A stretch of DNA of 64,000 nt from Microbispora corallina (lineage in GTDB: Bacteria; Actinomycetota; Actinomycetes; Streptosporangiales; Streptosporangiaceae): NCBI RefSeq assembly GCF_016863035.1, contig NZ_BOOC01000001.1, forward strand, positions 310,001 to 374,000, written 5' to 3'. The first letter of the stretch is position 1; every line of letters starts with the position of its first letter. The notes under the pieces were generated by a model. That model saw only the letters and a list, made by a program, of their open reading frames with translations, did not search any database and was not told where the DNA came from. Below are positions 39,429 to 54,254 of this stretch, one piece after another. The position numbers and the translations under genes are program-made.

Positions 39429-39458
39429 TTGTCTTGGTAGGAAATGTCTAGATATGCT
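39429..39458 (+). promoter_or_regulatory. Promoter of the BMP/methionine-salvage operon
   Basis: TTGTCT (39429-39434), 18 bp, TATGCT (39453-39458). The predicted start near 39465 gives a leader of about 55 nt that begins with a hairpin, CCGGGC (39472-39477), ATATC, GCCCGG (39483-39488). No riboswitch fold is recognised in it. Confidence 0.55.
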
Positions 39459-39518: not shown

Positions 39519-40562
39519 ATGCTCCACACTCGTGAACTCGCCGTACTCGCGTCGGCCGCCACCGTCCTGTCGCTCTCGCTCGCCGCGTGCGGCGGCGGGG
39601 GCTCCCCGTCCGCCTCTGGCACGGCCCCCTCCGGCAAGACGATCATCCTGATCACGCCCAACCCGGTGGGGACCGACAGCTTCCTCCAGCTGGGCGTGAA
39701 GGGAGCGGAGGCCGCCGCCAAGGAGATCGGGGCGTCGTTCAAGCTCTATGAGAGCAAGGACCCGTCGAGCATCGCCCAGAACGTCGACGCCGCGGTGCGG
39801 GCGAAGCCGACCGTCGTCGTGGGCATCAGCTTCTCCTTCGACGACGTCTTCAGCACCGTCCCCAAGCAGCACGCGGACCAGCGCTTCCTGGAGATCGACT
39901 CCTGCCCGAAGGCCCAACCCTCGAACCTGACCTGCGTGTCGTTCAAGGAGCACGAGGCGGCCTACCTCGCGGGCGTGGAGGCGGGACTGCTGTCGAAGAG
40001 CGGCTCGCTCGGGGTGGTCGCCGCGCTGGACTCGCCGTTCATCCACCGCTGGATCGACCCGTTCTTCGCCGGAGCCAAGTCGGTGAACCCGTCCTCCACC
40101 GGTACCCCGCTGTACGTGGGCGGCAGCAACCCGTTCAGCGACCCCGCACGGGCCAAGTCCCAGGCCCAGACGCTCATCGGCCGGGGCGCCGACGTGGTCG
40201 CCGCGGCGGCCTCCGGCGGCAACCCCGGGGTTTTCGAGGCCGCGGCGGCGGGCGGGGCGAAGTCGTTCGGCGTGGACGTGAACCAGTGCGCGCTGAGCCC
40301 GGGGAATGTGATCGACAACGTCATCAAGCACGTGGACGTGGCCGAGAGCGCGGCCATCCGGGACATCGCGGCCGGCAAGGCCGGCGGCGTGAAGGTGTAC
40401 GGCCTGGCCGAAGGGGGCGTGGGTGTGAACGCCCTGGACGCCGACGTCGCGTCCTCCGGCTGCACGGTGGCGGCGAGTCCCGAGGTGATCGCCAAGGTCA
40501 AGCAGGTCAGGGACGACATCGTGGCCGGCAGGGTCACGGTCGCCGACCCCCTGGCGGGCTAG
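39519..40562 (+). CDS. BMP-family nucleoside-binding lipoprotein
   Basis: 347 residues. The signal peptide ends in the lipobox SLAACGGG. The mature protein is the BMP/PnrA-like type I binding fold (Pfam Bmp): ITPNPVGTDSFLQLGVKGAE, NVDAAVRAKPTVVVGISFSF, YLAGVEAGLLSKSG and KSFGVDVNQCALSPGNV. Characterised members bind purine nucleosides. With the downstream methionine-salvage genes, 5'-methylthioadenosine is my preferred ligand, which is inference. It opens an eight-gene operon in which every following gene touches or nearly touches the next. Confidence 0.88.
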   Translation: MLHTRELAVLASAATVLSLSLAACGGGGSPSASGTAPSGKTIILITPNPVGTDSFLQLGVKGAEAAAKEIGASFKLYESKDPSSIAQNVDAAVRAKPTVVVGISFSFDDVFSTVPKQHADQRFLEIDSCPKAQPSNLTCVSFKEHEAAYLAGVEAGLLSKSGSLGVVAALDSPFIHRWIDPFFAGAKSVNPSSTGTPLYVGGSNPFSDPARAKSQAQTLIGRGADVVAAAASGGNPGVFEAAAAGGAKSFGVDVNQCALSPGNVIDNVIKHVDVAESAAIRDIAAGKAGGVKVYGLAEGGVGVNALDADVASSGCTVAASPEVIAKVKQVRDDIVAGRVTVADPLAG

Positions 40563-40564
40563 GC

Positions 40565-42154
40565 ATGCCGACCGGGGACGGCGCCGTGCCCCCGGCCGCC
40601 GAGCTCGTCGGCGTGACCAAGAGGTTCGGCGACGTGGTGGCCAACGACGGGATCGACCTCGCGATCGCGCGGGGCGAGGTCCACGGCGTGGTGGGCGAGA
40701 ACGGGGCCGGCAAGTCCACCCTCATGTCCATCCTGTACGGCCTGCACCGACCGGACGCCGGGCACGTGCTGCGCGACGGGAGACGGGTGCGGCTGCGGTC
40801 GCCCGCCGACGCGATCGCCCACGGGCTCGGCATGGTGCACCAGCGGTTCCGGCTCTTCCCGGAGCTGAGCGTGGCCGAGAACGTGGTGATCGGCGCCGAG
40901 CCGACCCGCCGGGGGATGCTCGACCTCGCCGCGGCCGGGCGCGAGGTCGAGCGGCTCGGCGAGCTCTACGGGCTGCGCGCCGATCCACGTGCCCGCGTCG
41001 GGCGGCTGCCTGTCGGCGTGCGCCAGCGGGTGGAGATCCTCAAGGCCCTCTACCGGGGCGCCCGGGTGCTGATCCTCGACGAGCCGACGGCGGTCCTCAC
41101 GCCCGGCGAGGCGGCGCGGCTGTTCGAGGTGCTGCGCACGGTCACCCGGAGCGGCGTCTCCGTCGTGCTGGTGACGCACAAGCTGGGCGAGGTCCTCACG
41201 GCCACCGACCGGGTGACGGTGCTGCGGGGGGGCCGGGTCACCGGGCGCTTCACCACCTCGGGCACGACGGCGGCGGAGCTCGTCGTCGCCATGATCGGAC
41301 GCTCGCCGGCCGCCGCACCCGCCCGGCGCTCCCCCACCGCGGAGCGGGCTCCGTACGCGCTGGAGGTGGACGGGCTGACGGTCCGCGACCGCGACGGGGT
41401 GGTGCGCCTGGCCGGCGTGTCGTTCGGCGTGCGGCCGGGCGAGATCGTCGGCCTCGCGGGAGTGGCGGGCAGCGGCCAGCGGGAGCTGGTGGACGCCGTC
41501 ACCGGCCTGCGGACCCCGGGTCCCGGCGATTCGGGGCGGGTGCTGCTGTCCGGGCGGACGGTACGCGGCGGGCGGGAGCCCGATGTCGCGTACGTCCCCG
41601 AGGACCGGCACGGCCGGGGCACCGCCGCCGCCATGTCCCTGCGGGAGAACCTCGTGATGGGCGACCAGCGGAGCTCCGCCCTGCGCGGCCGGTTCGGCCT
41701 GTCCTCCTCCGCCGTACGGGACCGGGCGCGAGCACTGGTGGAGAGCTTCGGCATCCGGGCGGCTTCGGTGGACGCCCCGATCTCCACGCTGTCCGGAGGG
41801 AACGCGCAGAAGGCCGTGCTCGCCCGGGAGCTGTCCCGGCCGGTCGGCGTGATCGTGGTGGAGGAGCCCACGCAGGGCGTCGACGTGGGCGCCCAGGAGA
41901 TGATCCACGGCCTGCTCGCCGAGGCCCGCGACCGAGGGCGGGCCGTCCTCCTGCAGTCGAGCGAGCTGACGGAGCTGCGCGCGCTGTCGGACCGGGTCCT
42001 GGTCCTGTACGAGGGACGGCTGGTGGCCGAGGTGCCCGGCGACGAGGCGACCGACGAGCGGCTGGGAGCCGCCATGACCGGAGCGCCGGCGTCGGCTGAC
42101 GCCCCGCGGACGCCGCCCGCCGATGACACCTCCGTCGCCGGGGTGGAGCCGTGA
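40565..42154 (+). CDS. Nucleoside-type ABC importer ATPase (duplicated domains)
   Basis: ATG 2 bp after the binding-protein stop, 529 residues with two ATPase halves. First half: Walker A GENGAGKSTLMSILYG, Walker B LILDEPTAVLTPGEA, VTHKLGEV. Second half: degenerate A GVAGSGQRELVDAVTG, signature TLSGGNAQKAVLARELS, VIVVEEPTQGVDVGAQEMIH. This asymmetric RbsA/MglA/NupO arrangement powers BMP-dependent nucleoside importers. The first half has VGVRQRVEILKAL where LSGG is expected, which is normal for the family. Confidence 0.9.
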   Translation: MPTGDGAVPPAAELVGVTKRFGDVVANDGIDLAIARGEVHGVVGENGAGKSTLMSILYGLHRPDAGHVLRDGRRVRLRSPADAIAHGLGMVHQRFRLFPELSVAENVVIGAEPTRRGMLDLAAAGREVERLGELYGLRADPRARVGRLPVGVRQRVEILKALYRGARVLILDEPTAVLTPGEAARLFEVLRTVTRSGVSVVLVTHKLGEVLTATDRVTVLRGGRVTGRFTTSGTTAAELVVAMIGRSPAAAPARRSPTAERAPYALEVDGLTVRDRDGVVRLAGVSFGVRPGEIVGLAGVAGSGQRELVDAVTGLRTPGPGDSGRVLLSGRTVRGGREPDVAYVPEDRHGRGTAAAMSLRENLVMGDQRSSALRGRFGLSSSAVRDRARALVESFGIRAASVDAPISTLSGGNAQKAVLARELSRPVGVIVVEEPTQGVDVGAQEMIHGLLAEARDRGRAVLLQSSELTELRALSDRVLVLYEGRLVAEVPGDEATDERLGAAMTGAPASADAPRTPPADDTSVAGVEP

Positions 42155-43266
42155 ACGCCGGCCCGGGCGGCGCCGGACGGAGGGCGGCGCGACGGCTCGC
42201 GCCCGCCGCGCCGGCCGCGCTCGCGGTGGCCGGGGCCCTCGGCCTCACCACGGTCGTGATGGTCCTGGCCGGCATCGACCCCGCGCGGGCGTACCCGGCC
42301 CTCGTCAACGGCGCGCTGGGCGACGGGAACCTCGAGTACACCGTCGGCGCCTTCGTCCCGACCCTCGGCATGGCCCTGGCGTTCGCGATCCCGCTGCGCG
42401 CCGGGGAGTTCAACCTGGGCGGGGACGGCCAGATGGCGCTGGGCGGGATCACGGCCGCGGCGCTGACGCTGGCGGCTCCGCTGCCGGCGGTCGCCGGGGT
42501 CGCGCTCCCGCTGACCGCGGCGGCACTGGCCGGGGCGCTCGCCGCCGGGATCTCCGCGCCGCTGCACACCCGGCTCGGCATTCCCGCGATCGTCACGACG
42601 CTGCTGATCAGCACCCCGGCGGTGTCACTCGCGTCCTACCTCGTCCGCTTCCCGCTGGCCGAGCGCGGCACCGGCATCGCCGAGACTCCCGTGCTGCCGG
42701 ACGCCGCCCACCTGCCGTCGATCGGCGACAGCGGGTACGTGACCATCGGGCTCCCGCTGGTCCTCTTCCTGACCGCCGCATGGCTGTACCTCGACGGGCG
42801 GACCGTCATCGGGTACGAGACGCGGGCGACCGGCCTCAACCGCGAGTTCGCGCGGTACGGCGGGGTGCGGGTGGACCGGCTGGCCCTGACCGCACTCGCG
42901 GGCGGCGGCGCCTGCGCCGGCCTCGTGGGAGGCCTGATCGTGCTCGGCCCGCCGTACCGGTTCGTCGACGGGGCGCTCACGGCCCCCGGCTACACGTTCA
43001 CCGCCATCGCGGCCGTGCTGCTGGCCACGGGAAGGCCCCCGGCCGTGCCTTTCACGGCCGCCCTGATGACGATCCTCCAGGTCGGCGGGGAGGGCATGGA
43101 GCGCGACGCCGGTGTGCCCGGCCAGCTCACCCAGATCGTGCAGGGGCTCGTCATCGTGATCGTCGCGGTCATGGCGACCGTGCGGCACCTCCGCGTCAGA
43201 CGGTCGCGCCCCGGGGGCCGCGGGCGGGACGGCGTGGCGCCGCAGGCCCGGGAGGCGGGCGCGTGA
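42151..43266 (+). CDS. Nucleoside-type ABC importer permease 1 (NupP/YufP-like)
   Basis: The GTG overlaps the ATPase stop by 4 bp, 371 residues. About ten hydrophobic helices, with the family motif GEFNLGGDGQMALGGITAA near residue 85 and GIPAIVTTLLISTPAVSLASY. It ends in a short Arg/Gly-rich tail. Pairs with the next permease (GTGA overlap) to form the channel, as in other BMP importers. Confidence 0.88.
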   Translation: MNAGPGGAGRRAARRLAPAAPAALAVAGALGLTTVVMVLAGIDPARAYPALVNGALGDGNLEYTVGAFVPTLGMALAFAIPLRAGEFNLGGDGQMALGGITAAALTLAAPLPAVAGVALPLTAAALAGALAAGISAPLHTRLGIPAIVTTLLISTPAVSLASYLVRFPLAERGTGIAETPVLPDAAHLPSIGDSGYVTIGLPLVLFLTAAWLYLDGRTVIGYETRATGLNREFARYGGVRVDRLALTALAGGGACAGLVGGLIVLGPPYRFVDGALTAPGYTFTAIAAVLLATGRPPAVPFTAALMTILQVGGEGMERDAGVPGQLTQIVQGLVIVIVAVMATVRHLRVRRSRPGGRGRDGVAPQAREAGA

Positions 43267-44198
43267 ACGTCCTCGACCCGGCCTTCGCGGCGTCGGTCCT
43301 CACCGCGACCGCGCCTGTCGTCCTCGCGGCGCTCGGCGGGCTGATCTGCTCGGTCTCCGGGGTGTTCAACATGGCGCTGGAGGGCACCCTGCTGTGGGGC
43401 GCCTTCGTCGCCGTGGTCGCGAGCCACCTGACGGGAAGCGCCTGGTGGGGGGTGGCGGCGGCCGTGGTCGCGGGCGTGCTGTACTCCGCCGTCCTGTCCG
43501 TCCTCACGGTGACCCTGCGGGCCGACGCGGTGGTGGTCGCGGTGGGGCTCAACCTGCTGGCGCTCGGGCTGACGGCGTTCCTGATGCGCGAGATCCTGGG
43601 CGTGGGCGGCACGTACACCTCCCCCGATCTGCGCGGCCTGCCCACGCTGGCCGCCGCCCTCGGCCGCGTCCCCCTGCTCGGCCCCGTGCTCGGGCCGCAG
43701 TCGCCCCTGGTCCCCGTGGCGTTCGCGCTGGTGGTCGCCGCCGCGTGGTGGCTGCGCCGGACCCGCTCCGGGCTGCGGCTGCGCGGGGCCGGCCAGCACC
43801 CGGAGGCGGCCGCGTCCCTCGGCCTGAGGGTCGCGGCGTACCGGCACGGCGCCGTGATGGCGGCGGGAGCGCTGTGCGGGCTCGCCGGGGCGCAGCTCGC
43901 CCTGGGCAACGTCACTCTGTTCAGCGAGGGGATGAGCGCGGGCCGCGGCTGGGTGGCCGTCGTGGCGGTCATGCTGGGCGGCGTCCGGCCCTACCGGGTG
44001 GCCGCCGCGTGCCTGCTGTTCGGGGTGGCCGAGGCGCTGGGATTCCGGCTCCAGGGGGCCGGGCTGCCGCAGCAGCTCGCGGACGCCGCCCCCTACCTGA
44101 TCACGCTCGTCGCGCTGGTCCTCGCCGCGTCGGCGGGCAGGCGCCGCCGGGCCGGAGGGGGCGTCGTGATCGCGCGGAAAGATCGGGGGGGACGATGA
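43263..44198 (+). CDS. Nucleoside-type ABC importer permease 2 (NupQ/YufQ-like)
   Basis: The GTG inside a GTGA overlap, 311 residues. The N-terminal motif GLICSVSGVFNMALEGTLLWGAF is broken here at GLICSVSGVFNMALEG and is diagnostic of the second permease. Other matches are RRTRSGLRLRGAGQHPEAAA and GMSAGRGWVAVVAVMLGG. Eight or nine membrane helices. Its stop overlaps the MtnA-family gene, tying the transporter to the salvage enzymes at the translational level. Confidence 0.88.
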   Translation: MNVLDPAFAASVLTATAPVVLAALGGLICSVSGVFNMALEGTLLWGAFVAVVASHLTGSAWWGVAAAVVAGVLYSAVLSVLTVTLRADAVVVAVGLNLLALGLTAFLMREILGVGGTYTSPDLRGLPTLAAALGRVPLLGPVLGPQSPLVPVAFALVVAAAWWLRRTRSGLRLRGAGQHPEAAASLGLRVAAYRHGAVMAAGALCGLAGAQLALGNVTLFSEGMSAGRGWVAVVAVMLGGVRPYRVAAACLLFGVAEALGFRLQGAGLPQQLADAAPYLITLVALVLAASAGRRRRAGGGVVIARKDRGGR

Positions 44199-45235
44199 GC
44201 ACGCAGCCCGGCCGTCCGGTGCTGGCGGACTCGGTCCGCCTCACGCCGGACGGCGTGGAGATCCTCGACCGGCGGGTCTACCCGTTCGAGGTCCGGTGGG
44301 TCAGGTGCGGCACGAGCGAGGAGGTCGCCGTGGCCGTGGAGCGCATGGTCACGCAGAGCTCCGGGCCGCTGTTCGCGACCACGGCGGGCATGGTCCTCGC
44401 CGCCAGGGAGGCCCGGGGCGAGCCCCCGGACCGGGCAGCCGAGCGGCTGCGGGCCGCCGGGCGGCGCCTCGTCGCCACCCGTCCGACGAACAACCACATC
44501 CGGGACGCGGTCCTGGCCGTCCTGTCCGGCACGGTGGACGGTCCTCTGCCCGGCCTCGCCGGGGACGAGCTGGTCGCGGCCGTCGAGGACGCGGCGGCCC
44601 GGCACGACGCGGCCTATTGGGCGCGCAGCGAGGCCCTCGGCGCGAACGCCGCCTCACTGCTGGCCGACGGCGCCCGGGTGCTCACCCACTGCTGGGCCGA
44701 CGCCTACCTGATCACCTCGGTCGAGGCGGCCCGGCGGGCCGGCAAGCGGCTGGAGTTCGTCTGCACGGAGACCCGGCCATACCTGCAGGGCGCCCGGCTG
44801 ACCGCCGCCACGCTGGTCGAGATGGGCTACCGTCCCACGGTGATCACCGACGGGATGGTCGCCGCGGCGCTGGCCGACGGGCTGGCCGACGTCGCGCTGG
44901 TCGCGGCCGACCGGGTCACGCTCGACGGACACGTGGTCAACAAGGTCGGCACACTCGGCGTCGCGCTGGCCGCCCGTGCCTTCGAGGTCCCGTTCTACGC
45001 GCTGGTCCAGGCGCCCGACCCGCTCGCGCCCACCGTCGGCGACGTGGTGATCGAGCGCCGCGACGGGGACGAGGTCCTCCACCTCCTCGGCGCGCGCACC
45101 GCGGCGGAGGGCACCACCGGCTACTACCCCGCCTTCGACGCCACCCCGCCCCACCTGGTGACGCGGATCGTCACCGAACGAGGCGTCTACCCGCCGGAAC
45201 AGGTGTCCCGGCACTTCGACGAGGAGAGTTCATGA
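44195..45235 (+). CDS. mtnA: MtnA/eIF2B-alpha family sugar-phosphate isomerase, divergent
   Basis: ATGA overlap with the permease, 346 residues. The fold is that of methylthioribose-1-phosphate isomerase: GTSEEVAVAVERMVTQSSGP, the catalytic-Cys block VLTHCWADAYL (about 169), ETRPYLQGARLTAATLVEMG and the catalytic Asp in VAADRVTLDGHVVNKVGT. The usual RGAPAIG motif of MtnA is replaced by SSGPLFATTAG, and THCNAG by THCWAD. So it may isomerise methylthioribose-1-phosphate, ribose-1,5-bisphosphate or a related 5-deoxy sugar phosphate. Co-encoded MtnB and MtnC favour the methionine-salvage role. Confidence 0.75.
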   Translation: MSTQPGRPVLADSVRLTPDGVEILDRRVYPFEVRWVRCGTSEEVAVAVERMVTQSSGPLFATTAGMVLAAREARGEPPDRAAERLRAAGRRLVATRPTNNHIRDAVLAVLSGTVDGPLPGLAGDELVAAVEDAAARHDAAYWARSEALGANAASLLADGARVLTHCWADAYLITSVEAARRAGKRLEFVCTETRPYLQGARLTAATLVEMGYRPTVITDGMVAAALADGLADVALVAADRVTLDGHVVNKVGTLGVALAARAFEVPFYALVQAPDPLAPTVGDVVIERRDGDEVLHLLGARTAAEGTTGYYPAFDATPPHLVTRIVTERGVYPPEQVSRHFDEESS

Positions 45236-46188
45236 GCCAGGTCCGCCGTGTCGTCGTGGACACCGATACCGGCATCGACGATGCCCACACGCTGCTGTAT
45301 CTCGCCGGCCGCCCCGACGCCGAGATCGTCGCGATCAGCTCCGTGTTCGGGAACTGCCTCGAGGAGGACGCGACCAGGAACATCGGCTACGTGACCCGGC
45401 TGCTCGGCCTGGAGGTGCCGATCGCGCGGGGCGCCGCCGAGCCCATCGCCGGAGTCGCGCACATCGCCGGGTACGTCCACGGCAAGGACGGCCTGGGCGA
45501 CCGCGGCTACGACCGTCCCCTTCCCGAGGTGACCGGAGAGAGCGGGGCGGAGCTGCTGGTGCGGCTGGCGCACGAGCGGCCGGGCGAGCTCGACCTGCTC
45601 GCGCTCGGCCCGCTGACCAACCTCGGCCTCGCCCTGCGCATCGACCCCGAGCTGTTCACCCGGTACCGCTCGGTCGTGCTGATGGGCGGCTCCGGGCCGT
45701 ACGCCGAGCCCGGCACGCTGCTGATGATCGACGCGAACGTCAACAACGACCCGGAGGCGGCACGGGCGGTCTTCGCGGCCCCGCGGAACGAGCTCGTGAT
45801 GGTGGGGGTGAACGTCACAGCCGGGACCATCCTCGACGAGCGGGCCATCGCGGCGCTGCGCGCCGCCCCCGGATCGAGAGCCCGGTTCGCCGTCGAGATC
45901 CTGGAGACGTACCTGGACTTCTACCAGAACGAGTGGGGGCGCCGGATCATCCCGCTGCACGACCCCCTGGCCGCCGGGATCCTGCTCGACCCAGCCTTCG
46001 CGACGGCGTGGACGGACGGGCCGGTCAACGTCGTCACGGACGGATTCCTCGCGCGGGCCCGCCTGATGCGGACCGTGGACGGCCTGCCGCCCGCCTTCCC
46101 CCACGAGCCGGCGCCGCCCACCCGGGTGGTCACGAACGTGGACGCGACCCGGTTCGTCGCCGACTTCGTGGAGGTGCTGTCCCGATGA
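45232..46188 (+). CDS. Inosine-uridine-type nucleoside hydrolase
   Basis: ATGA overlap, 318 residues. The calcium-binding N-terminus VVDTDTGIDDAHTLLYLAG, the VLMGGSGP loop, NVNNDPEAA and the catalytic HDPLAAG motif are all present, so the enzyme should be active. The family cleaves ribonucleosides to base and ribose. Placed between mtnA and mtnC and after a nucleoside importer, it could split 5'-methylthioadenosine into adenine and methylthioribose, replacing MtnN or MtnP, which are absent here. Purine-nucleoside salvage is the alternative. Confidence 0.85.
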   Translation: MSQVRRVVVDTDTGIDDAHTLLYLAGRPDAEIVAISSVFGNCLEEDATRNIGYVTRLLGLEVPIARGAAEPIAGVAHIAGYVHGKDGLGDRGYDRPLPEVTGESGAELLVRLAHERPGELDLLALGPLTNLGLALRIDPELFTRYRSVVLMGGSGPYAEPGTLLMIDANVNNDPEAARAVFAAPRNELVMVGVNVTAGTILDERAIAALRAAPGSRARFAVEILETYLDFYQNEWGRRIIPLHDPLAAGILLDPAFATAWTDGPVNVVTDGFLARARLMRTVDGLPPAFPHEPAPPTRVVTNVDATRFVADFVEVLSR

Positions 46189-46880
46189 CCGTCTCCTGGA
46201 TCGTCCTCGACATCGAGGGCACGACGAGTTCCACCGCGTCCGTGCACGTGGGCCTGTACGCCTACGCCCGCCCACGGCTCGGCCCGTGGATCGACGGCCA
46301 CCGCGGCGACCCCGAGGTGCGGGAGGCGGTGGCGCAGGTGGAGCGGGAGGCCGGCCTGCCCCATGGGGCGGCGACCGTCGATGTCGTGAAGGTCCTGCAC
46401 GGCTGGATGGACGGCGACGTCAAGGCGACACCGCTCAAGACCCTCCAAGGGCAGGTGTGGGCCGCGGGCTTCGCGGCGGGCGAGCTCACCGCGCACGTCT
46501 TCCCCGACGTCGCCCCCGCGCTGCGCCGGTGGCACGCCACCGGGACGCGACTGGCCGTCTTCTCCTCGGGAGCGGTCTCCAGCCAGCGCCCCTGGTTCCG
46601 GCACACGGCGGACGGCGACCTGTCGGTTCTGCTGGACCGGCACTTCGACACGGTGAACGCGGGCCCGAAGCGGGAGACCGCCTCCTACGAGCGGATCGCG
46701 AAGGCGCTCGGCAGCCCGGGAGGGCGGGTGCTGTTCCTGTCCGACGTGCCGGCCGAGCTCGACGCGGCGGCCGCGGCGGGCTGGCGCACGACCGGCGTCC
46801 GCCGCCCCGGCGAGCCGAGCGAGGGCGCCGGCTTCGGGACACATCCGGTCGTCTCGTCGTTCGAGGAGGTGGAGGTCTGA
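46185..46880 (+). CDS. mtnC: Enolase-phosphatase E1 (acireductone synthase)
   Basis: ATGA overlap, 231 residues, the normal length. HAD motif I is SWIVLDIEGTTSSTASVHV at the N-terminus. The MtnC-specific block is LKTLQGQVWAAGFAAGELTA. Motif II is LAVFSSGAVSSQRPWF, motif III NAGPKRETASYERI and motif IV LFLSDVPAELDAA. It enolises and dephosphorylates 2,3-diketo-5-methylthiopentyl-1-phosphate to acireductone, the substrate of MtnD encoded at 52470. Strong family match, so this anchors the pathway assignment. Confidence 0.93.
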   Translation: MTVSWIVLDIEGTTSSTASVHVGLYAYARPRLGPWIDGHRGDPEVREAVAQVEREAGLPHGAATVDVVKVLHGWMDGDVKATPLKTLQGQVWAAGFAAGELTAHVFPDVAPALRRWHATGTRLAVFSSGAVSSQRPWFRHTADGDLSVLLDRHFDTVNAGPKRETASYERIAKALGSPGGRVLFLSDVPAELDAAAAAGWRTTGVRRPGEPSEGAGFGTHPVVSSFEEVEV

Positions 46881-47515
46881 TGGGCACGCAGGACCGGCTC
46901 ACGGCCGGCCGCGTTTTCGAGGCCGGGGGACGGCTGGCGGTGGAATCGGCCAGGTTCACCGCGTTCGGGTGGATGCGCGGCACGTCGGGCAACCTGTCCG
47001 AGGTCGTCTCCCGCGACCCGCTGCGGCTGGCGGTCACCGCGAGCGGCCTGGACAAGGGCGAGCTGACCGCCTCCGACGTGGCCGTGGTGGACGAGGCGGG
47101 CGACGTCGTCCCCGTGGAGGGCGTGGCGCCGCTGACGCCGTCCGCCGAGGCTGGGCTGCACGCCCGGGTGGCGGCGTTGACCGGCGCGGGGGCGGTCGTC
47201 CACGTGCACGCGCTGAACGCCGTCGTCGCCGGTCACCGATGGCCGGACGGCGTGCTCCTGCGGGACGTCGAGACGCTGAAGGGCATCGGCCGCCTGGCCC
47301 ACGACGACGAGGTGATCGTCCCGGTGATCCGCAACAGCCAGGACATGACGGAGCTGGGCGACCGGTTCGAGTCGGCCTACGACCCGCGGACGCCCGCCGT
47401 GATCGTGGCCTCCCACGGCCTGTACGCCTGGGGCTCGGATCTCACGCGGGCCAGGCACGTCACCGAGTGCGTGGAGTGGCTCCTGGCGTACGCCCTCGCC
47501 GTCACCCCCGCCTGA
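46880..47515 (+). CDS. mtnB: Methylthioribulose-1-phosphate dehydratase
   Basis: The ATG shares one base with the mtnC stop (TGATG), 211 residues. It belongs to the class II aldolase fold, but the MtnB hallmarks are clear: GWMRGTSGNLSEV, the Glu in TPSAEAGLHARV, zinc ligands in VVHVHALNAV, VPVIRNSQDMTELGDR, and the third zinc His in VIVASHGLYAWG. It dehydrates methylthioribulose-1-phosphate to the diketone used by MtnC. Its last codons lie within the 40-bp terminator palindrome shared with mtnK. Confidence 0.92.
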   Translation: MGTQDRLTAGRVFEAGGRLAVESARFTAFGWMRGTSGNLSEVVSRDPLRLAVTASGLDKGELTASDVAVVDEAGDVVPVEGVAPLTPSAEAGLHARVAALTGAGAVVHVHALNAVVAGHRWPDGVLLRDVETLKGIGRLAHDDEVIVPVIRNSQDMTELGDRFESAYDPRTPAVIVASHGLYAWGSDLTRARHVTECVEWLLAYALAVTPA

Positions 47516-47536
47516 CGTCAGGCGGGGGTGACGGCG
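47497..47536. terminator. 40-bp perfect palindrome forming both gene ends and a bidirectional terminator
   Basis: The left arm CGCCGTCACCCCCGCCTGAC (47497-47516) is the exact reverse complement of 47517-47536. There is no mismatch and no loop base. The mtnB stop (47513-47515) and mtnK stop (47518-47520) are both inside it, two bases apart, so the two proteins share the C-terminus AVTPA. It would fold into a very stable hairpin in either transcript. Confidence 0.92.
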
Positions 47537-48762
47537 CCGGCCAGCAGGTCGCCGAGACGGTCGAACAGCACGGCCGGCTCCGGCAGTGCCGCGCCCTCCA
47601 CGAGCAGCAGCCTGGCCGCCCGCAGCACACCGCGGATGGCCCTGACCCGCTCGTCCTCCGGCAGGGTCTCGATGTCGGTGACGCGCGAGAAGCCGATGAC
47701 CCGGCGGGCGGCTTTGGCCGCGCCCGCCGCCGCGGCGTCGCCGTACACCTTGGCGAGGTAGCCCTCCAGCACGCCGTCGCCGAAGACCCGCGGGTCGGCC
47801 CGCCCCGGCCACAGCGCCGCGAACTCCTCTCGGAACGCCGCCCACGTCTGCGCCGCCAGGCCGAGCACCCAGGAGGCGTGGCCCTCGTCGCCGAGCGCCA
47901 GGGCGCGGGCGGCCGCCAGGACGTAGTTGCCCCACAGGGCGCCGATGTCGAACCCGACCGGCCCGTAGAAGGCGAACTCGACGTCGAAGGCCCGGGTGGA
48001 GCGCGGGGCGCCGGCGGTCTCGGCCCGGACCAGCACCGACCCCGTGTGGAGGTCGCCATGGATCAGCGCCTCGGCGTGGGTCATGAACGCGAGTTTGGCC
48101 GCCCCGATGGCCGCCCGCACGTCCGGGTCCCCGGCGTAGGCCGCGACGTCGTCCTCGTTGGCCGGCAGGATCCGGTTGTGCTCGTGCCGGATGTAGGGCT
48201 CGGTGAAGACCAGGTCCTCGGTGATCTCGCACAGGTCCGGGTTGACGGACGCGGCGACCGCCGCCTTGTGACCCTTGGCCCCGAGGCCGAACACCGAGGT
48301 GCCGAAGGCCACGCGGGCGACGTACCGCCCGAGGTCCCCGGCCGCGCCCTCGTGGCGCAGCCCCTCGTTGAGCGCGCCGCGCCACACCCGGTGGTCGGAC
48401 AGGTCCTCCATCGCCACCACGTGGCGGGCGGGGTCCTCGTCGTAGATCTCGGGCACCAGGCCGGGCGCGACCGCGTTGTGGACCCGCAGCGCGGCGGCCT
48501 CGTAGCGGTTGCGCTCCGGCGTGATCGGCCAGGTGGGGTCCACCCTGACGTACGGCAGGGACTGCTTGAGCACCAGTCCCCGGCCCCCGGCCGTCTCCAC
48601 CACGAAGACCAGGTTGAGGTTGCCGTCGCCCACCTCGCGTACGGAGGTCAGGGCGGCCGGGTCGGCCAGGCGGCGCAGCGCGGGCCGGGACGCGAGGTAG
48701 CCGGGGACGGCGCCGACCGTGAGGATCTCGTAGGACGCGGCGGCGTCGACGGTCGCTGTCAC
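47518..48762 (-). CDS. mtnK: 5-methylthioribose kinase
   Basis: GTG start behind AAGGAAG, overlapping the permease stop by 4 bp. 414 residues, the MtnK length. The N-lobe has REVGDGNLNLVFVVETAGGRGLVLKQ (here read as VGDGNLNLVFVVE and LVLKQSLPYVRV). VVAMEDLSDHRVWRG and the catalytic loop EALIHGDLHTGSVLV with AFDVEFAFYGPVGFDIG (DFG-equivalent DxE) are characteristic. It phosphorylates methylthioribose at C1 with ATP. Co-translation with a ribose-type importer suggests that the imported sugar is its substrate. Confidence 0.92.
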   Translation of the reverse strand: MTATVDAAASYEILTVGAVPGYLASRPALRRLADPAALTSVREVGDGNLNLVFVVETAGGRGLVLKQSLPYVRVDPTWPITPERNRYEAAALRVHNAVAPGLVPEIYDEDPARHVVAMEDLSDHRVWRGALNEGLRHEGAAGDLGRYVARVAFGTSVFGLGAKGHKAAVAASVNPDLCEITEDLVFTEPYIRHEHNRILPANEDDVAAYAGDPDVRAAIGAAKLAFMTHAEALIHGDLHTGSVLVRAETAGAPRSTRAFDVEFAFYGPVGFDIGALWGNYVLAAARALALGDEGHASWVLGLAAQTWAAFREEFAALWPGRADPRVFGDGVLEGYLAKVYGDAAAAGAAKAARRVIGFSRVTDIETLPEDERVRAIRGVLRAARLLLVEGAALPEPAVLFDRLGDLLAGAVTPA

Positions 48763-49786
48763 GTGGACTTCCTTTCTCCTCGCCCGGTGTAACTGACCAC
48801 GAGCGAGCCGATGAGCAGCGCCCCCTGCACGAAGGTCTGCGCGTAGTAGGGCGCGTTGAGCATGGTCAGACCGTTGATCACGACGCCGATGAACAGTGCC
48901 CCCACGACGGTTCCCACGGCGTTGGGGCGGTCGGCCCCCAGCACGGCGAACCCGATGAGGGCCGCCGCCACCGACTGCAGCAGGTACGGGTCGCCCGCGC
49001 CGACGTCCCCTCTGCCGAGGCGGGCGGACAGCAGGATCCCGCCCACGGCGGCGCACAGCCCGGAGACGGCGTAGGCCGCCGCGCGGTAGCGGGCGACCCT
49101 GATACCCGCGAGCCGGGCGGCCTCGGCGTTGCCGCCGATGGCGTAGAGCGCGCGGCCCCACCGGGTATGGACGAGGAACACGTGGACGGCGACCGCCAGC
49201 AGGGCGAACACGACAACCGGGACCGGGATGGACGCCACGGTGCCGCCGCCGAGCCAGGCGAAGCCCTCGGTGTAGCGGCCGGGCGCGGGGGCGCCGTCCA
49301 CCGTCATCCCCGCCGAAACCGACTGGCCCGACGTGACGATCAGGGCGAGCCCCTGGAACAGGAACATGGTGCCGAGCGTGGCGACCAGGTCGGGAACCTT
49401 CGCCACCACCGTCAGCAGGACGTTGACTCCCGCCACGACCAGCCCGGCCGCCAGGCCCGCCACGACCGCCGTGCCTCCGGTCAAGTTGAAGCGGACCATC
49501 GTCGTCGCCGTGATCATGACCACGAAGCCCACGCAGGCGCCGGCCGACAGGTCGAAGCCGCCCGTCGTCATAGACACCGTGACCCCGAGCGCGACCACGC
49601 CGACGACCGCCACCGACTGCAGCACGATCAGGGCGTTGCCGTACGTCGCGAAGGCCGGGGCGAGCAGGGCGAACAGCGGCAGCAGCAGAGCCAGGAGGAC
49701 GACCAGGCCGTAGCGGCGCACCGCCGCCGCCCCCTGCCGGCTCCGGCGCCGCTCGCGGGGCTCCGAGGGCGCGTCCCGAACGGCGG

Positions 49787-49790
<4 letters not shown>
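48759..49790 (-). CDS. Ribose-type ABC importer permease (RbsC-like)
   Basis: GTG start in a GTGA overlap with the ATPase, 343 residues. An Arg-rich lead precedes about nine helices. Family motifs: GVTVSMTTGGFDLSAGACVG, LVATLGTMFLFQGLALIVTSG (broken as LVATLGTMFLFQG), YAIGGNAEAARLAGI and GIRVARYRAAAYAVSG. The single permease forms a homodimer in this family. Coupled to mtnK downstream. Predicted substrate is methylthioribose or a similar 5-deoxy pentose, by context. Confidence 0.88.
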
Positions 49791-51294
<1,504 letters not shown>

Positions 51295-51298
<4 letters not shown>

Positions 51299-52374
51299 GA
51301 GGCGGCCCAGGGCACCCGGGCGACGTCGGGGGTGATCAGGGCCGGCAGGGCCGCGGTCAGCTGCTGGACGTTGGCGATGCCGGCGTCACGCAGCCGCTTC
51401 TGCGTGATGAGCGCGGGGGGCACCTTCAGCGCGTGGTCCACCGGCCGCCCGGCGACCAGCAGGGCGGCGGCGCGCACGGCGATCCGCCCGACGTTGGAGG
51501 CGTCGGCCGCCGAGGTGGCGACCCAGGGGCTGCCCGGCTCGGTCATCACGCCGATGTCCGCGGTGGAGACGTCCGCGCCGTAGACCTTCACCTTGTCCTG
51601 CAGGCCCAGCTCCTTGACCGCGAGCGTCGCCCCCTTGGCGAACTCGTCGTACGGGGCGAAGATCGCCTTGACGCCGGGGTTGGCCGTGAGCGCGGCCTTG
51701 GCCTGGTCGGCGACCGCCGAGGCGGTGGAGTTGTTGACCACGCCGAACTGGGCGACCTGCTTGATGCCCGGGTTGTCCTTCTTGAACTGGGTCCAGACCT
51801 CGTTGCGGCGGTCGAGCGGGGCGAAACCGGCGACGTACACGTAGGCCACGTCACCGGTCCCGCCTGTGTCGGCCTTGAGCGCGCCCAGTGCCTGCTCCGC
51901 GATCTGCCGGTCGTCCTGGGTGATGGCGACCGCGTCCGGCGACCCGGGGTCGACGTCGTACGCCACCAGGGGAATGCCCTCGGCGACCGCCTTCTTGATG
52001 GCCGGCTGGACGGTCTCGGCGAAGCCGTGGTCGACGATGATGGCGGCGGGCCGGCGGCCGATCGCCTGCTCGATGTCGAGCGCCTGCTTGTCGTTGTTGC
52101 CGTCGCCGCTGGAGACGTCGAGCGTCACGTTCAGGGCGGACGCCTCGGCCCGGGCTCCCGCGAGCCACTGCTCGAAGTAGTCGCCTGAGGACAACTGGCG
52201 GACGAGGGATATCTCCACCTTCCCCGTCGAGAACGGGGTGGGGACCGGTTCAGCGGCGGACGAGGCGGAGGCGGGGGCGGCGGAGCCGGCGGCCGTGGTG
52301 CTGGTGGTTCCCTGGGAGCAGCCGGCGAGGACGAGCACACCGGCGACCACTCCGAGGAGTCGTGCCTGGATCAC
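51295..52374 (-). CDS. Ribose-type periplasmic-binding lipoprotein (RbsB-like)
   Basis: The GTG at 52374 coincides with the expected transcription start (TATCCT six bases before), 359 residues. Lipobox LVLAGCSQG, Ser/Thr/Ala linker, then the type I fold: [79 protein letters not shown]. It is the first gene of the minus-strand operon ending in mtnK. Ligand inferred to be methylthioribose. Ribose or another pentose cannot be excluded. Confidence 0.88.
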
Positions 52375-52409
52375 ACGGGCAGGATAGGCAGCGCCGCCGA
52401 CTTTGTCCA
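52375..52409 (-). promoter_or_regulatory. Leaderless promoter of the Rbs-like/mtnK operon
   Basis: On the minus strand TGGACA (plus 52404-52409), exactly 17 bp, TATCCT (plus 52381-52386), six bases, then the GTG at 52374. One of the best promoters in the window. No ribosome site. Confidence 0.7.
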
Positions 52410-52412
52410 CTT

Positions 52413-52424
52413 TTCATGCATGAA
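52413..52424. promoter_or_regulatory. 12-bp palindrome TTCATGCATGAA in the mtnD/rbsB-like divergent region
   Basis: A perfect palindrome that lies 4 bp upstream of the -35 of the minus-strand operon and about 10 bp upstream of the possible mtnD -35. Its position between two divergent salvage promoters makes it a candidate operator. No matching copy is seen upstream of the plus-strand operon. Confidence 0.45.
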
Positions 52425-52433
52425 TAGGCGGGA

Positions 52434-52469
52434 TTGCCGGAACAGGGCTTCCCGACGCAGAATCGGGAC
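52434..52469 (+). promoter_or_regulatory. Possible leaderless promoter of mtnD
   Basis: TTGCCG (52434-52439), 18 bp, CAGAAT (52458-52463), six bases, then the ATG at 52470. The hexamers are weaker than those of the opposing promoter. Confidence 0.4.
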
Positions 52470-53060
52470 ATGACATTCCTGACCGTTTACACCGATCACG
52501 ACAGCTCCGAAACCCTCCTGGAGACAGAGGACCCCGAGGAGATCGCCCGCGCCCTCAAGGAGATCGACGTCCGGCTGCGGCACTGGCCGGTCCTCGACGA
52601 GCTGAGGGGCGGGGCCGACCAGGAGCGGGTCCTGGAGGCCTACCGCGACGAGGTGGCGAGGATCGTCGAGGAGGAGGGCTACACGTTCGTGGACGTGGCG
52701 CAGCTCCACCCCGACGACGCCCCCGACTGGGCGGAGCGGGCCCGGGCCGCCCGGGAGAAGTTCCTGTCCGAGCACACCCACGACGACGACGAGGTGCGCT
52801 TCTTCGTCGGCGGCTCCGGGATCTTCTACCTGCACGTGGACGGCAGGGTCCATGCGATCCTGTGCGAGGCGGGCGACCTTCTGAGTGTCCCGAAGGACAC
52901 CACGCACTGGTTCGACATGGGCACCGACCCCGAGTTCACCGCGATCCGCTTCTTCCACGACGACGACGGCTGGGTGGGGAACTTCACCGGGAACCCCATC
53001 GCGTCCCGGATCCCCGACTTCGACGCCATCGCCGCCCGCCGCGCGTCGCTGCGGTCCTGA
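52470..53060 (+). CDS. mtnD: Acireductone dioxygenase
   Basis: 196 residues, cupin fold. Metal ligands: His, His and Glu in SEHTHDDDEVRFFVGGSG (about residues 97-103) and His in VPKDTTHWFDMG. The extended N-terminus (HWPVLDELRGGADQERVLEA) is normal for bacterial enzymes. With Fe(II) it makes the methionine keto-acid and formate. With Ni(II) it would take an off-pathway route to methylthiopropionate, formate and CO. It completes the mtnK-A-B-C-D set; the final aminotransferase (MtnE) is not in the window. The stop is directly adjacent to the stop of the convergent monooxygenase gene. Confidence 0.93.
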   Translation: MTFLTVYTDHDSSETLLETEDPEEIARALKEIDVRLRHWPVLDELRGGADQERVLEAYRDEVARIVEEEGYTFVDVAQLHPDDAPDWAERARAAREKFLSEHTHDDDEVRFFVGGSGIFYLHVDGRVHAILCEAGDLLSVPKDTTHWFDMGTDPEFTAIRFFHDDDGWVGNFTGNPIASRIPDFDAIAARRASLRS

Positions 53061-54254
53061 TCAGCTGTACGGCCCGGGCGTGGGCAGCCTCCCGTTCAGC
53101 GCGTGGTCGCCCACCTCGCGCAACTTGTAGGCGATCGGGTCGTGGAGGGTGTGGGTGCGGGCGTCGCGCCAGTAGCGGTCGAACCCCGCCCCCGCCGCGG
53201 TGGCACGCGCCCCCATGACCTCGAAGATCGTGGCGGTCACGTCCAGGACGGCGCGCTGCGCCACGACCTTGGCGGCGGACACGGCGAGCGCCGCCTCCCC
53301 GCGCTCCCGGGCCGTCAGGTCGCGCCCGCGCGCCACCGCCCGGCCGAAGGCCGCCCGCGCCCGCTCCGCGAGAGCGTCCGCCGCCGCCACCTGGGCGGCC
53401 ATGTCACCGTATGTCTCCAGCACGTACGGATCGAGGGACGCCGACTCCACCCCGCTGCCCGTCCACGGGCGGGACCTCGTCCGCGTGTACTCGGCGGCGG
53501 CGGCCAGAGCCCCCTGGGCGATGCCGGTGTACAGATGCACGAAGACGGCCTGGAACCCCGGCACCACGAGGCTCTGGTCCGGCCGGGCCGACTCCTCGTC
53601 CGGCGGCACCCGCCCCACCACCCACCCGGCCGGCACCCGGGCGTCCTCGAAGGCCACGCTCCCACTGGCGGACCTGCGCACGCCGAGGGCGTCCCAGTCG
53701 TCGGCGTGGCGGACCCCGGCGTCCCTGCCGTCCACGACCACCATGACCTTGCCGCCCCCGGCGTCCCCGCTCACCACGATCCGGTCGGCCACCTGTGCTC
53801 CCGTCGCGAACCCCTTCCGCCCACGGACCCGGTACCCGTCGCCGTCCGGGACCAGGGTCAGCCCGGGGTCGCGGGGGTTGCTGGCGCCGCCCCAGAACCA
53901 GCCCTCCCGGGCCGTGCCGCGGGCGGCCCGCTCCGCGAGGTCCGCGTTGCCGTAGTGACCCAGCCGCCACAGGTGCAGGTGGTGGTAGCCGAGCAGCATC
54001 GCCGCCGACGCGTCGGCGGCAGCGAGGACGCGGACGGCGGACAGGACCGTCTCCCAGCTCTCCCCCGCACCGCCGAGCTCCCTCGGGACCAGCAGGGCCA
54101 GCAGTCCGGACTCCCGGAGCAGCGCGACCTCCGCGAGCGGGGCGGACCCGGCCGCGTCGCGGGCGGCCGCGTCCCGGGCGAGCGCGGAGGCGACCTCCCG
54201 CGCCGCCGCGAGCGGATCACCAGGACCCGGACGGCCGGTGGGCGACGTCGTCAT
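53061..54254 (-). CDS. DszC/SfnB-like flavin monooxygenase of the acyl-CoA-dehydrogenase fold
   Basis: 397 residues. The fold is acyl-CoA dehydrogenase: LRESGLLALLVPRELGGAGE, GWFWGGASNPRDPG, GKFATG-type loop RGRKGFATGAQVADRIVVSG, a C-terminal helical domain (TATIFEVMGARATAAGAGFD) and TLHDPIAYKLREVGD. The catalytic Glu of true dehydrogenases is not apparent, and the DARTHTLHDP ending is typical of DszC/SfnB/DmsC-like FMNH2-dependent monooxygenases that oxidise sulfur compounds. Neighbouring mtnD supports a link to organosulfur metabolism. The oxidised compound is unknown. Confidence 0.72.
   Translation of the reverse strand: MTTSPTGRPGPGDPLAAAREVASALARDAAARDAAGSAPLAEVALLRESGLLALLVPRELGGAGESWETVLSAVRVLAAADASAAMLLGYHHLHLWRLGHYGNADLAERAARGTAREGWFWGGASNPRDPGLTLVPDGDGYRVRGRKGFATGAQVADRIVVSGDAGGGKVMVVVDGRDAGVRHADDWDALGVRRSASGSVAFEDARVPAGWVVGRVPPDEESARPDQSLVVPGFQAVFVHLYTGIAQGALAAAAEYTRTRSRPWTGSGVESASLDPYVLETYGDMAAQVAAADALAERARAAFGRAVARGRDLTARERGEAALAVSAAKVVAQRAVLDVTATIFEVMGARATAAGAGFDRYWRDARTHTLHDPIAYKLREVGDHALNGRLPTPGPYS

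What the first reader, a model, noticed from the sequence alone, without database searches (positions are those of the whole stretch)
39519..53060. Self-contained methionine-salvage island with two dedicated ABC importers
MtnB, MtnC, MtnD and MtnK carry their full family motifs and an MtnA-family isomerase is present, all within 13.5 kb. Woven into the same translationally coupled operons are a BMP nucleoside importer, a ribose-type importer and a nucleoside hydrolase. Salvage genes are usually fed by internal methylthioadenosine (MTA). Here the layout predicts uptake of external MTA and/or methylthioribose (MTR) as a sulfur source. The combination of both importer types with a complete pathway is, to my knowledge, not a described system.
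Basis: partly seen in the sequence, partly recalled or inferred. Interest (0 to 1): 0.78.

Follow-up and report, generated by a model that had tools for sequence, protein, structure and literature searches.

The report
Gene island importing sulfur-containing nucleoside leftovers
A soil actinomycete carries a compact set of genes that appears to take up methylthio-nucleosides and methylthio-ribose released by other cells and turn them back into methionine, using a nucleoside-splitting enzyme and an isomerase of unusual make-up.

Summary
Two convergent, tightly coupled operons plus mtnD (39519-53060) encode MtnK, an MtnA-family isomerase, MtnB, MtnC, MtnD, a BMP-type importer, a ribose-type importer and a nucleoside hydrolase. 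The set recurs in 20 of 80 named relatives. The ribose-type binding protein belongs to a family found beside mtnK in rhizobia, Devosiaceae, Priestia and Klebsiella. MTR importers beside mtn genes are a published prediction (PMC3228920), so that half is known. The nucleoside half looks new. The BMP receptor keeps a nucleoside pocket. The hydrolase keeps its catalytic residues but has replaced two pocket residues, recalled as the 5'-OH contacts, in 40 of 40 sequences. An MTR kinase gene follows it directly in some relatives. The genome already has an MTA phosphorylase, so MtnK is not needed for internal MTA. No ligand or activity was tested. I rate it a new variant of a known kind.

The parts
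39429..39458 (+). Promoter-embedded motif TTGTCTTGGTAGGAAATGTCTAGATATGCT upstream of bmpA
   Evidence: Only match in the 8.36 Mb genome within 3 mismatches, reversed-pattern control 0; GTAGGAW occurs 42 times in 471 kb of island loci, 35 of them in the two island promoter regions.
39519..40562 (+). bmpA: BMP/PnrA-type nucleoside-binding lipoprotein (lipobox LAAC)
   Evidence: PF02608 147.5 bits vs 24.1; pocket residues F55, D127, W178, F239, V252, D253, K270 invariant in 23 sequences.
40565..42154 (+). bmpB: double ABC ATPase of the BMP importer
   Evidence: PF00005 153 vs 25 bits; best NCBIfam hit is the BMP-type B6 ATPase model, under cut-off.
42151..43266 (+). bmpC: permease 1
   Evidence: PF02653 105 vs 26.8; only NCBIfam hit NF047929, under cut-off.
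43263..44198 (+). bmpD: permease 2
   Evidence: PF02653 122 vs 26.8; only NCBIfam hit NF047928, under cut-off.
44195..45235 (+). mtnA*: divergent MtnA-family isomerase
   Evidence: PF01008 over cut-off, TIGR00512 194 vs 279; RGAPAIG absent and the loop after the catalytic Cys 7 residues shorter in 105 of 105 clade members.
45232..46188 (+). nhy: nucleoside hydrolase (IU-NH family), proposed MTA hydrolase
   Evidence: PF01156 226.7 vs 34.2; N160->G and E166->D, catalytic residues kept, 40 of 40.
46185..46880 (+). mtnC: enolase-phosphatase
   Evidence: TIGR01691 over cut-off.
46880..47515 (+). mtnB: methylthioribulose-1-phosphate dehydratase
   Evidence: TIGR03328 over cut-off.
47518..48762 (-). 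mtnK: 5-methylthioribose kinase (an alternative start extends it to 48795)
   Evidence: TIGR01767 over cut-off.
48759..49790 (-). rbsC-like permease of the MTR importer
   Evidence: PF02653.
49787..51298 (-). rbsA-like double ATPase of the MTR importer
   Evidence: PF00005.
51295..52410 (-). rbsB-like binding lipoprotein of the MTR importer (lipobox LAGC; alternative start 52374)
   Evidence: PF13407; best PDB sequence match 4ry8_A, 228 bits.
52470..53060 (+). mtnD: acireductone dioxygenase
   Evidence: PF03079 over cut-off.
53061..54254 (-). acdh: DszC/SfnB-like flavoenzyme of acyl-CoA dehydrogenase fold, possible accessory gene
   Evidence: NF043015 303 and TIGR04022 266 bits, both under cut-off; acyl-CoA dehydrogenase Pfam domains over cut-off; a relative within 60 nt upstream of mtnA* in 42 of 43 Pseudonocardiales loci.

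Best explanation
The island is a scavenging system for methylthio compounds made by other cells. The RbsABC-like importer brings in 5-methylthioribose (MTR). The BMP importer brings in the nucleoside, most likely 5'-methylthioadenosine (MTA). The nucleoside hydrolase splits MTA to adenine and MTR. MtnK phosphorylates MTR from both routes, MtnA* isomerises it, and MtnB, MtnC and MtnD lead to 2-keto-4-methylthiobutyrate, which an aminotransferase encoded elsewhere turns into methionine. Shown here: gene content, conservation, family membership, residue patterns and co-occurrence. Inferred: ligands, catalytic activity, direction of transport and regulation.
For: (1) Conserved module: the BMP + hydrolase + A, B, C, K + Rbs set is in 20 of 80 named loci from seven genera. 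(2) The SBP family follows mtnK: 43-44% identical SBPs lie in rbsABC operons divergent from mtnK-mtnA in Sinorhizobium, Agrobacterium and Mariluticola, a 32% one in a Priestia mtn cluster, and a 30% one beside mtnK-mtnA in Klebsiella. Best PDB sequence match is 4ry8_A, whose title I recall as an MTR-binding protein with MTR bound. (3) MtnK is surplus for internal MTA: the genome has an MTA phosphorylase (NF005876 453 vs 306, TIGR01694 302 vs 275), as do 27 of 28 MtnK genomes and 15 of 15 same-genus genomes of the sample, while MtnK is in only 2 of those 15. In 24 of 24 genomes with both genes, mtnK lies within about 7 kb of mtnA*. (4) The hydrolase makes something MtnK uses: in L073 and L083 an MtnK gene (43-44% identical to the window's) lies between the hydrolase and mtnC, the L073 copy over the TIGR01767 cut-off (384 vs 275). 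(5) The hydrolase keeps Asp10/14/15, Asn39, Asn168, His241 and Asp242 but has N160->G and E166->D in 40 of 40 island-type sequences (window included), with a two-residue insertion there relative to the Crithidia enzyme; the one genome paralogue that I read keeps N and E. (6) The BMP receptor keeps the aromatic sandwich and ribose contacts described for BmpA.
Against: No ligand, activity or growth data. BMP receptors bind ordinary nucleosides, and nothing found singles out MTA. The role of N160 and E166 as 5'-OH contacts, and the title of 4ry8, are recalled. SBPs of the same family (43-48% identical to the window's) also occur without mtnK nearby, beside flavin-dependent oxidoreductase genes in Rhizobium and Methylobacterium and in another context in Bradyrhizobium. 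MtnA* lacks two features of canonical MtnA. Microbispora oryzae (L069) keeps mtnA*, B, C, K and D without importers or hydrolase in the stretch held; in Actinoallomurus (L086) the BMP genes lie behind mtnD and no hydrolase is seen, but the locus ends there; L126 has the hydrolase without BMP genes in the stretch held. Another MTA importer has been suggested in print for Rhodospirillum (the methionine importer MetINQ; PMC4958253, passages read).
Confidence: 0.68

Rival explanations
1. Only MTR is the external substrate. The BMP importer and the hydrolase form a general nucleoside scavenging unit that shares the promoter by accident of history.
For: The BMP pocket is that of a general nucleoside receptor. 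Desertimonas L121 has the Rbs importer with mtnK but no BMP or hydrolase gene in the stretch held.
Against: The hydrolase has lost two normally kept pocket residues in 40 of 40, overlaps mtnA* in 15 of 15 loci listed, by 4 nt in 11, and is followed by an MtnK gene in L073 and L083.
Confidence: 0.2
2. The island recycles only the cell's own MTA and MTR; the importers recapture leaked metabolites.
For: The enzymes are those of the ordinary salvage pathway.
Against: An MTA phosphorylase is already present in 27 of 28 MtnK genomes and would give MTR-1-phosphate without MtnK; leakage recapture does not need a nucleoside hydrolase.
Confidence: 0.08
3. The true substrate is a related 5-deoxy or 5-thio sugar or nucleoside, or an oxidised form such as a sulfoxide, and the DszC/SfnB-like enzyme handles the sulfur.
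For: A relative of that enzyme (44% identical) is directly downstream of the same SBP family in Rhizobium L149, a relative lies within 60 nt upstream of mtnA* in 42 of 43 Pseudonocardiales loci, and the gene lies beside mtnD here; MtnA* is divergent.
Against: MtnB, MtnC and MtnD, specific for the methylthio pathway, are complete and over their cut-offs. The flavoenzyme gene is next to mtnD in only 3 of 23 other loci, and in 2 of the 17 that hold at least 1.5 kb beyond mtnD.
Confidence: 0.12

Closest known systems
Predicted MTR importer mtrACB with mtnK-mtnA in enterobacteria and Bacillus cereus (PMC3228920, passages read)
   Same: Ribose-type ABC importer beside MTR kinase and salvage enzymes, proposed to take up MTR excreted by neighbours.
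   Different: No BMP importer or nucleoside hydrolase named in the passages read; the window SBP is about 30% identical to the Klebsiella one and closer to the rhizobial ones.
MtnN-MtnK-MtnA-B-C-D methionine salvage pathway
   Same: Kinase, dehydratase, enolase-phosphatase and dioxygenase as in the textbook route.
   Different: MTA cleavage here would be by an IU-NH-family hydrolase, a fold different from MtnN (recalled); the isomerase is divergent; an MTA phosphorylase coexists.
DHAP shunt operon of E. [quoted passage not shown] PMC12632272, passages read)
   Same: Catabolic operon using external MTA and other 5'-deoxynucleosides, with a transporter gene.
   Different: Aldolase route to DHAP; a single putative transporter gene; no MtnB, MtnC or MtnD in the operon described.
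BMP nucleoside receptors (BmpD PMC7093131, BmpA PMC13325309; passages read)
   Same: Aromatic sandwich and ribose-contact residues kept.
   Different: Loop near the base differs (SFLQ here; SFNQ in the relatives aligned); linked to methionine salvage genes.
Trypanosoma vivax nucleoside hydrolase acting on 5'-fluoro-5'-deoxyadenosine (reported in PMC7408626, passage read)
   Same: Shows that this enzyme family can act on a 5'-substituted adenosine.
   Different: A purine-salvage enzyme with Asn173, Glu184 and Asn186 listed in the pocket of the trypanosomal IAG enzyme (PMC4660014, passage read).

Membership tests
MTR kinase MtnK | Over the curated TIGR01767 cut-off | tested here: met
   355.4 vs 275 bits
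Methylthioribulose-1-phosphate dehydratase MtnB | Over the TIGR03328 cut-off | tested here: met
   162.9 vs 137.05 bits
Enolase-phosphatase MtnC | Over the TIGR01691 cut-off | tested here: met
   203.1 vs 128.1 bits
Acireductone dioxygenase MtnD | Pfam ARD over cut-off | tested here: met
   PF03079 104.6 vs 27 bits
MTR-1-phosphate isomerase MtnA | Over the TIGR00512 equivalog cut-off | tested here: not met
   194 vs 279 bits
MTR-1-phosphate isomerase MtnA | RGA(P) motif and the long loop after the catalytic Cys (role in phosphate binding recalled) | tested here: not met
   RGA 0 of 105 in the clade against 29 of 31 canonical or PDB rows (the other 2 rows are gapped there); loop segment 13 residues in 105 of 105 against 20-21 in 31 of 31
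MTR-1-phosphate isomerase MtnA | Catalytic Cys and Asp with ETRPxxQG and NK motifs (catalytic roles recalled) | tested here: met
   Kept in 105 of 105
IU-NH nucleoside hydrolase | Pfam family and calcium/catalytic residues (roles recalled) | tested here: met
   PF01156 226.7 vs 34.2; Asp10, 14, 15, Asn39, His241, Asp242 kept in 40 of 40
IU-NH nucleoside hydrolase | Asn160 and Glu166 (5'-OH contacts, recalled) | tested here: not met
   G and D in 40 of 40
BMP/PnrA nucleoside receptor | Aromatic sandwich plus ribose-contact Asp and Lys | tested here: met
   F55, F239, D127, D253, K270 invariant in 23; correspondence read by eye from the Lbp alignment and PMC13325309
MTR-binding SBP (4ry8 / MtrB) | Sequence family and mtnK neighbourhood | tested here: met
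   42% identical to 4ry8; relatives beside mtnK in five of eight plasmid regions opened
MTR-binding SBP (4ry8 / MtrB) | Binds MTR | not testable with these tools
SfnB / DszC monooxygenases (acdh) | Over the TIGR04022 or NF043015 cut-off | tested here: not met
   266 vs 431 and 303 vs 850 bits

The most novel reading that the evidence does not exclude
The island defines a second way into methionine salvage: a dedicated MTA importer of the BMP class and an MTA nucleosidase evolved from the calcium-dependent nucleoside hydrolases rather than from MtnN, feeding an isomerase subfamily (MtnA*) that has rebuilt its phosphate site and may act on a somewhat different intermediate. In Pseudonocardiales the same isomerase works with MtnB, MtnC, MtnD and a DszC/SfnB-like enzyme in genomes where no MtnK or MtnP was found (0 of 15 each), which would mean a still unknown entry route.
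Probability: 0.35. Interest if true: 0.68.

Novelty: new variant of a known kind. Interest (0 to 1): 0.52.

Why it matters
MTR is excreted by microbes that lack the pathway, such as E. coli (PMC3228920, passage read). A conserved actinomycete module dedicated to external MTA and MTR would be a cross-feeding route for reduced sulfur and would give a testable assignment for a BMP importer, a nucleoside hydrolase subfamily and an MtnA subfamily. The Pseudonocardiales version, without any recognised enzyme to make MTR-1-phosphate, points to a gap in the known pathway.

Tried and rejected
Riboswitch or other known RNA control: no Rfam match in window 34000-56000 at gathering thresholds. Literature for the 5'-OH contacts or for 4ry8/5ulb by name: none; led to one docking paper that lists pocket residues only. 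The idea that the SBP is an AI-2 (LsrB) receptor: no entry named LsrB among the 51 PDB sequence hits, and relatives lie beside mtnK. The idea that Pseudonocardiales hide an MTA phosphorylase or nucleosidase: of 8 genomes searched with PF01048, 3 hold a single hit; of the hits I named three, namely two of these single hits (L160, L162) and the best of nine in a third genome (L165), and all three are purine nucleoside phosphorylases; the remaining hits were not run against a family library, so this is open. The third nucleoside hydrolase of the genome (L158) was not recovered by my motif search, so the paralogue control rests on one sequence. The 40 hydrolase sequences and 105 MtnA* sequences (window, 77 from named loci and 27 from the genome search) come from two overlapping routes, so some species are counted twice. 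The GTAGGAW count comes from related species and is not a significance test. No tree was built.
Full report
What is there. Between 39519 and 53060 lie thirteen genes: a + operon bmpA-bmpB-bmpC-bmpD-mtnA*-nhy-mtnC-mtnB, a convergent - operon rbsB-rbsA-rbsC-mtnK that ends 2 nt from mtnB, and mtnD divergent from rbsB. Junctions overlap by 4 nt or 1 nt except a 2-nt gap after bmpA. MtnB, MtnC and MtnK pass their curated NCBIfam cut-offs; MtnD, the hydrolase and the importer genes pass Pfam. Both binding proteins have a lipobox (LAAC, LAGC; read from the sequence).

Conservation. One scan of the genome collection with the isomerase gave 274 relatives, of which the best 80 were kept as named loci. 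Comparing the 14 window proteins with these loci and applying identity thresholds, 20 of 80 hold BMP genes, hydrolase, mtnA*, mtnC, mtnB, mtnK and Rbs genes together (Planotetraspora, Nonomuraea, Sphaerisporangium, Streptosporangium, Microtetraspora, Herbidospora, Acrocarpospora). Partial sets tell the modules apart: L069 has the enzymes only; L121 (Desertimonas) has enzymes plus the Rbs importer; L126 has no BMP genes and L078 no mtnK, mtnD or Rbs genes in the stretch held; nine loci (L072, L077, L079, L080, L085, L087, L088, L092, L099) have mtnA* alone (six) or with a 60-63%-identical hydrolase (three). 45 Pseudonocardiales loci were compared with each other; most have a different operon, flavoenzyme-mtnA*-mtnC-mtnB-mtnD, with 43 holding mtnD, all 43 of these a flavoenzyme relative, and 42 this relative within 60 nt upstream of mtnA*.

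The MTR importer. The RbsB-like protein matches PDB chain 4ry8_A best by far (228 bits; the next, 5ulb, 132). I recall 4ry8 as the Thermotoga lettingae MTR-binding protein with MTR bound, but no call confirmed the title (one search found nothing). In the plasmid collection 220 records hold a relative at E 1e-15. I opened eight regions, seven reached through the binding protein and one (Klebsiella) through MtnK. In Sinorhizobium, Agrobacterium and Mariluticola the rbsABC genes diverge from mtnK-mtnA, in Priestia they follow mtnW, mtnX, mtnB and a cupin gene with mtnK near, and in Klebsiella they lie beside mtnK-mtnA. In Rhizobium bangladeshense, Methylobacterium and Bradyrhizobium no mtnK is annotated nearby; the first two have flavin-dependent oxidoreductase genes. 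5ulb is 83% identical to the Klebsiella protein. The published prediction of an MTR importer (mtrACB) in enterobacteria and B. cereus (PMC3228920, passages) therefore covers this half of the island.

The nucleoside half. The BMP receptor keeps the residues described for BmpA (PMC13325309, passages): F55, W178 (Phe in BmpA) and F239 around the base, D127, D253 and K270 at the ribose, invariant in 23 sequences (correspondence read by eye from the alignment). This says nucleoside, not which one. The hydrolase keeps the calcium and catalytic residues, but Asn160 and Glu166 (Crithidia numbering; recalled as the 5'-OH contacts; Asn173 and Glu184, which I take as the trypanosomal counterparts, are listed as pocket residues in PMC4660014, passage) are Gly and Asp in 40 of 40 island-type sequences, and Ala or Gly and Asp in 6 of 6 of the 60% type, with a two-residue insertion in the same loop of the window protein relative to the Crithidia enzyme. 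Of the genome's two paralogues I read one, and it keeps Asn and Glu. That fits a substrate without a 5'-OH. A family member is reported to act on 5'-fluoro-5'-deoxyadenosine (PMC7408626, passage). In L073 and L083 an MTR kinase gene lies between the hydrolase and mtnC; L073 also keeps the usual mtnK, while in L083 no other was found; the L073 copy passes the MtnK cut-off with 384 bits. An unlinked purpose for the hydrolase would not explain this.

Why external supply. The genome has an MTA phosphorylase elsewhere, which gives MTR-1-phosphate directly. In a sample of 297 genomes of the order, MTA phosphorylase is in 220 (217 over the cut-off) and MtnK in 28. Read against each other, 27 of the 28 also have the phosphorylase; so do all 37 genomes whose listed mtnA* match has 70% identity or more (two of them partial matches); and mtnK lies within about 7 kb of mtnA* in 24 of 24 genomes with both. 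Four MtnK genomes have no such mtnA*. In the genus, 15 of 15 genomes have the phosphorylase and 2 of 15 have MtnK. So MtnK is an addition, best explained by a supply of free MTR from outside or from the hydrolase.

Control. A motif TTGTYY-N-GGTAGGAA(A/T)T-N3-TAGATATGCT sits upstream of bmpA, and a GTAGGAT-type version lies between rbsB and mtnD in seven Herbidospora and two Nonomuraea loci, but not in the window. GTAGGAW occurs 42 times in 471 kb and 35 of these fall in the two promoter regions (7.2 kb) (related species, so not independent). Within 3 mismatches the bmpA motif is unique in the genome. I read it as an operator for an unidentified regulator (inference); no regulator gene is among the island genes.

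Results against a simple picture. (a) MtnA* lacks RGAPAIG and has a 7-residue shorter loop after the catalytic Cys in 105 of 105 sequences, while keeping Cys, Asp, Arg94, ETRPxxQG and NK; its substrate must be tested. (b) In 15 Pseudonocardiales genomes that hold mtnA*, no MtnK and no MTA phosphorylase was found (16 asked, L103 not held); of 8 searched with PF01048, 3 have a single hit, and the three hits that I named are purine nucleoside phosphorylases. How MTR-1-phosphate arises there is open. (c) The flavoenzyme at 53061-54254 is DszC/SfnB-like but under both cut-offs. Outside Pseudonocardiales it lies next to mtnD in only 3 of 23 loci, 2 of the 17 with at least 1.5 kb of room. A 44% identical enzyme follows the MTR-type SBP gene in Rhizobium; the Methylobacterium one is 31% identical. 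It may act on a methylthio compound (inference).

Verdict. MTR import with salvage genes is a known kind; the nucleoside half, the divergent isomerase and the recurrent flavoenzyme make it a new variant. In the listings I saw no paper that describes the BMP importer and nucleoside hydrolase together with methionine salvage; only open-licence papers are searched there, and only the top of each listing is shown.

Noticed in passing
window 44195-45235 and 104 relatives: MtnA-family clade that has lost the RGAPAIG motif and part of the loop after the catalytic Cys but keeps the Cys, the Asp and the ETRPxxQG and NK motifs.
   Followed up: partly
L100-L147 (Pseudonocardiales), e.g. L101 8835-12928: Conserved operon flavoenzyme-mtnA*-mtnC-mtnB-mtnD in genomes where neither MtnK nor MTA phosphorylase was found (0 of 15 each).
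   Followed up: partly
L149 6911-9241 and L150 5607-7954: MTR-type binding-protein genes beside DszC/SfnB-like and LLM flavin-dependent oxidoreductase genes and without mtnK: possibly a different, oxidative use of MTR-like sulfur compounds.
   Followed up: partly
L153 11391-14942 (Agrobacterium sp. MA01 plasmid): A BMP-family receptor gene, an amidase gene and an ABC ATPase gene follow the MTR importer cluster.
   Followed up: no
L073 12015-13232, L083 3417-4583, L048 3581-4015: MTR kinase gene (41-44% identical to the window's) placed right after the nucleoside hydrolase in the BMP operon; L048 is cut off within it.
   Followed up: partly
L072, L079, L080, L087, L088, L092: mtnA* present without any other salvage gene within the stretch held.
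   Followed up: no
window 39429-39458; rbsB-mtnD gap of L075, L076, L089-L091, L093-L095, L097: Motif with GTAGGAA in the spacer of a putative promoter before bmpA; a similar GTAGGAT motif between rbsB and mtnD in these relatives, not in the window; no regulator gene in the island.
   Followed up: partly
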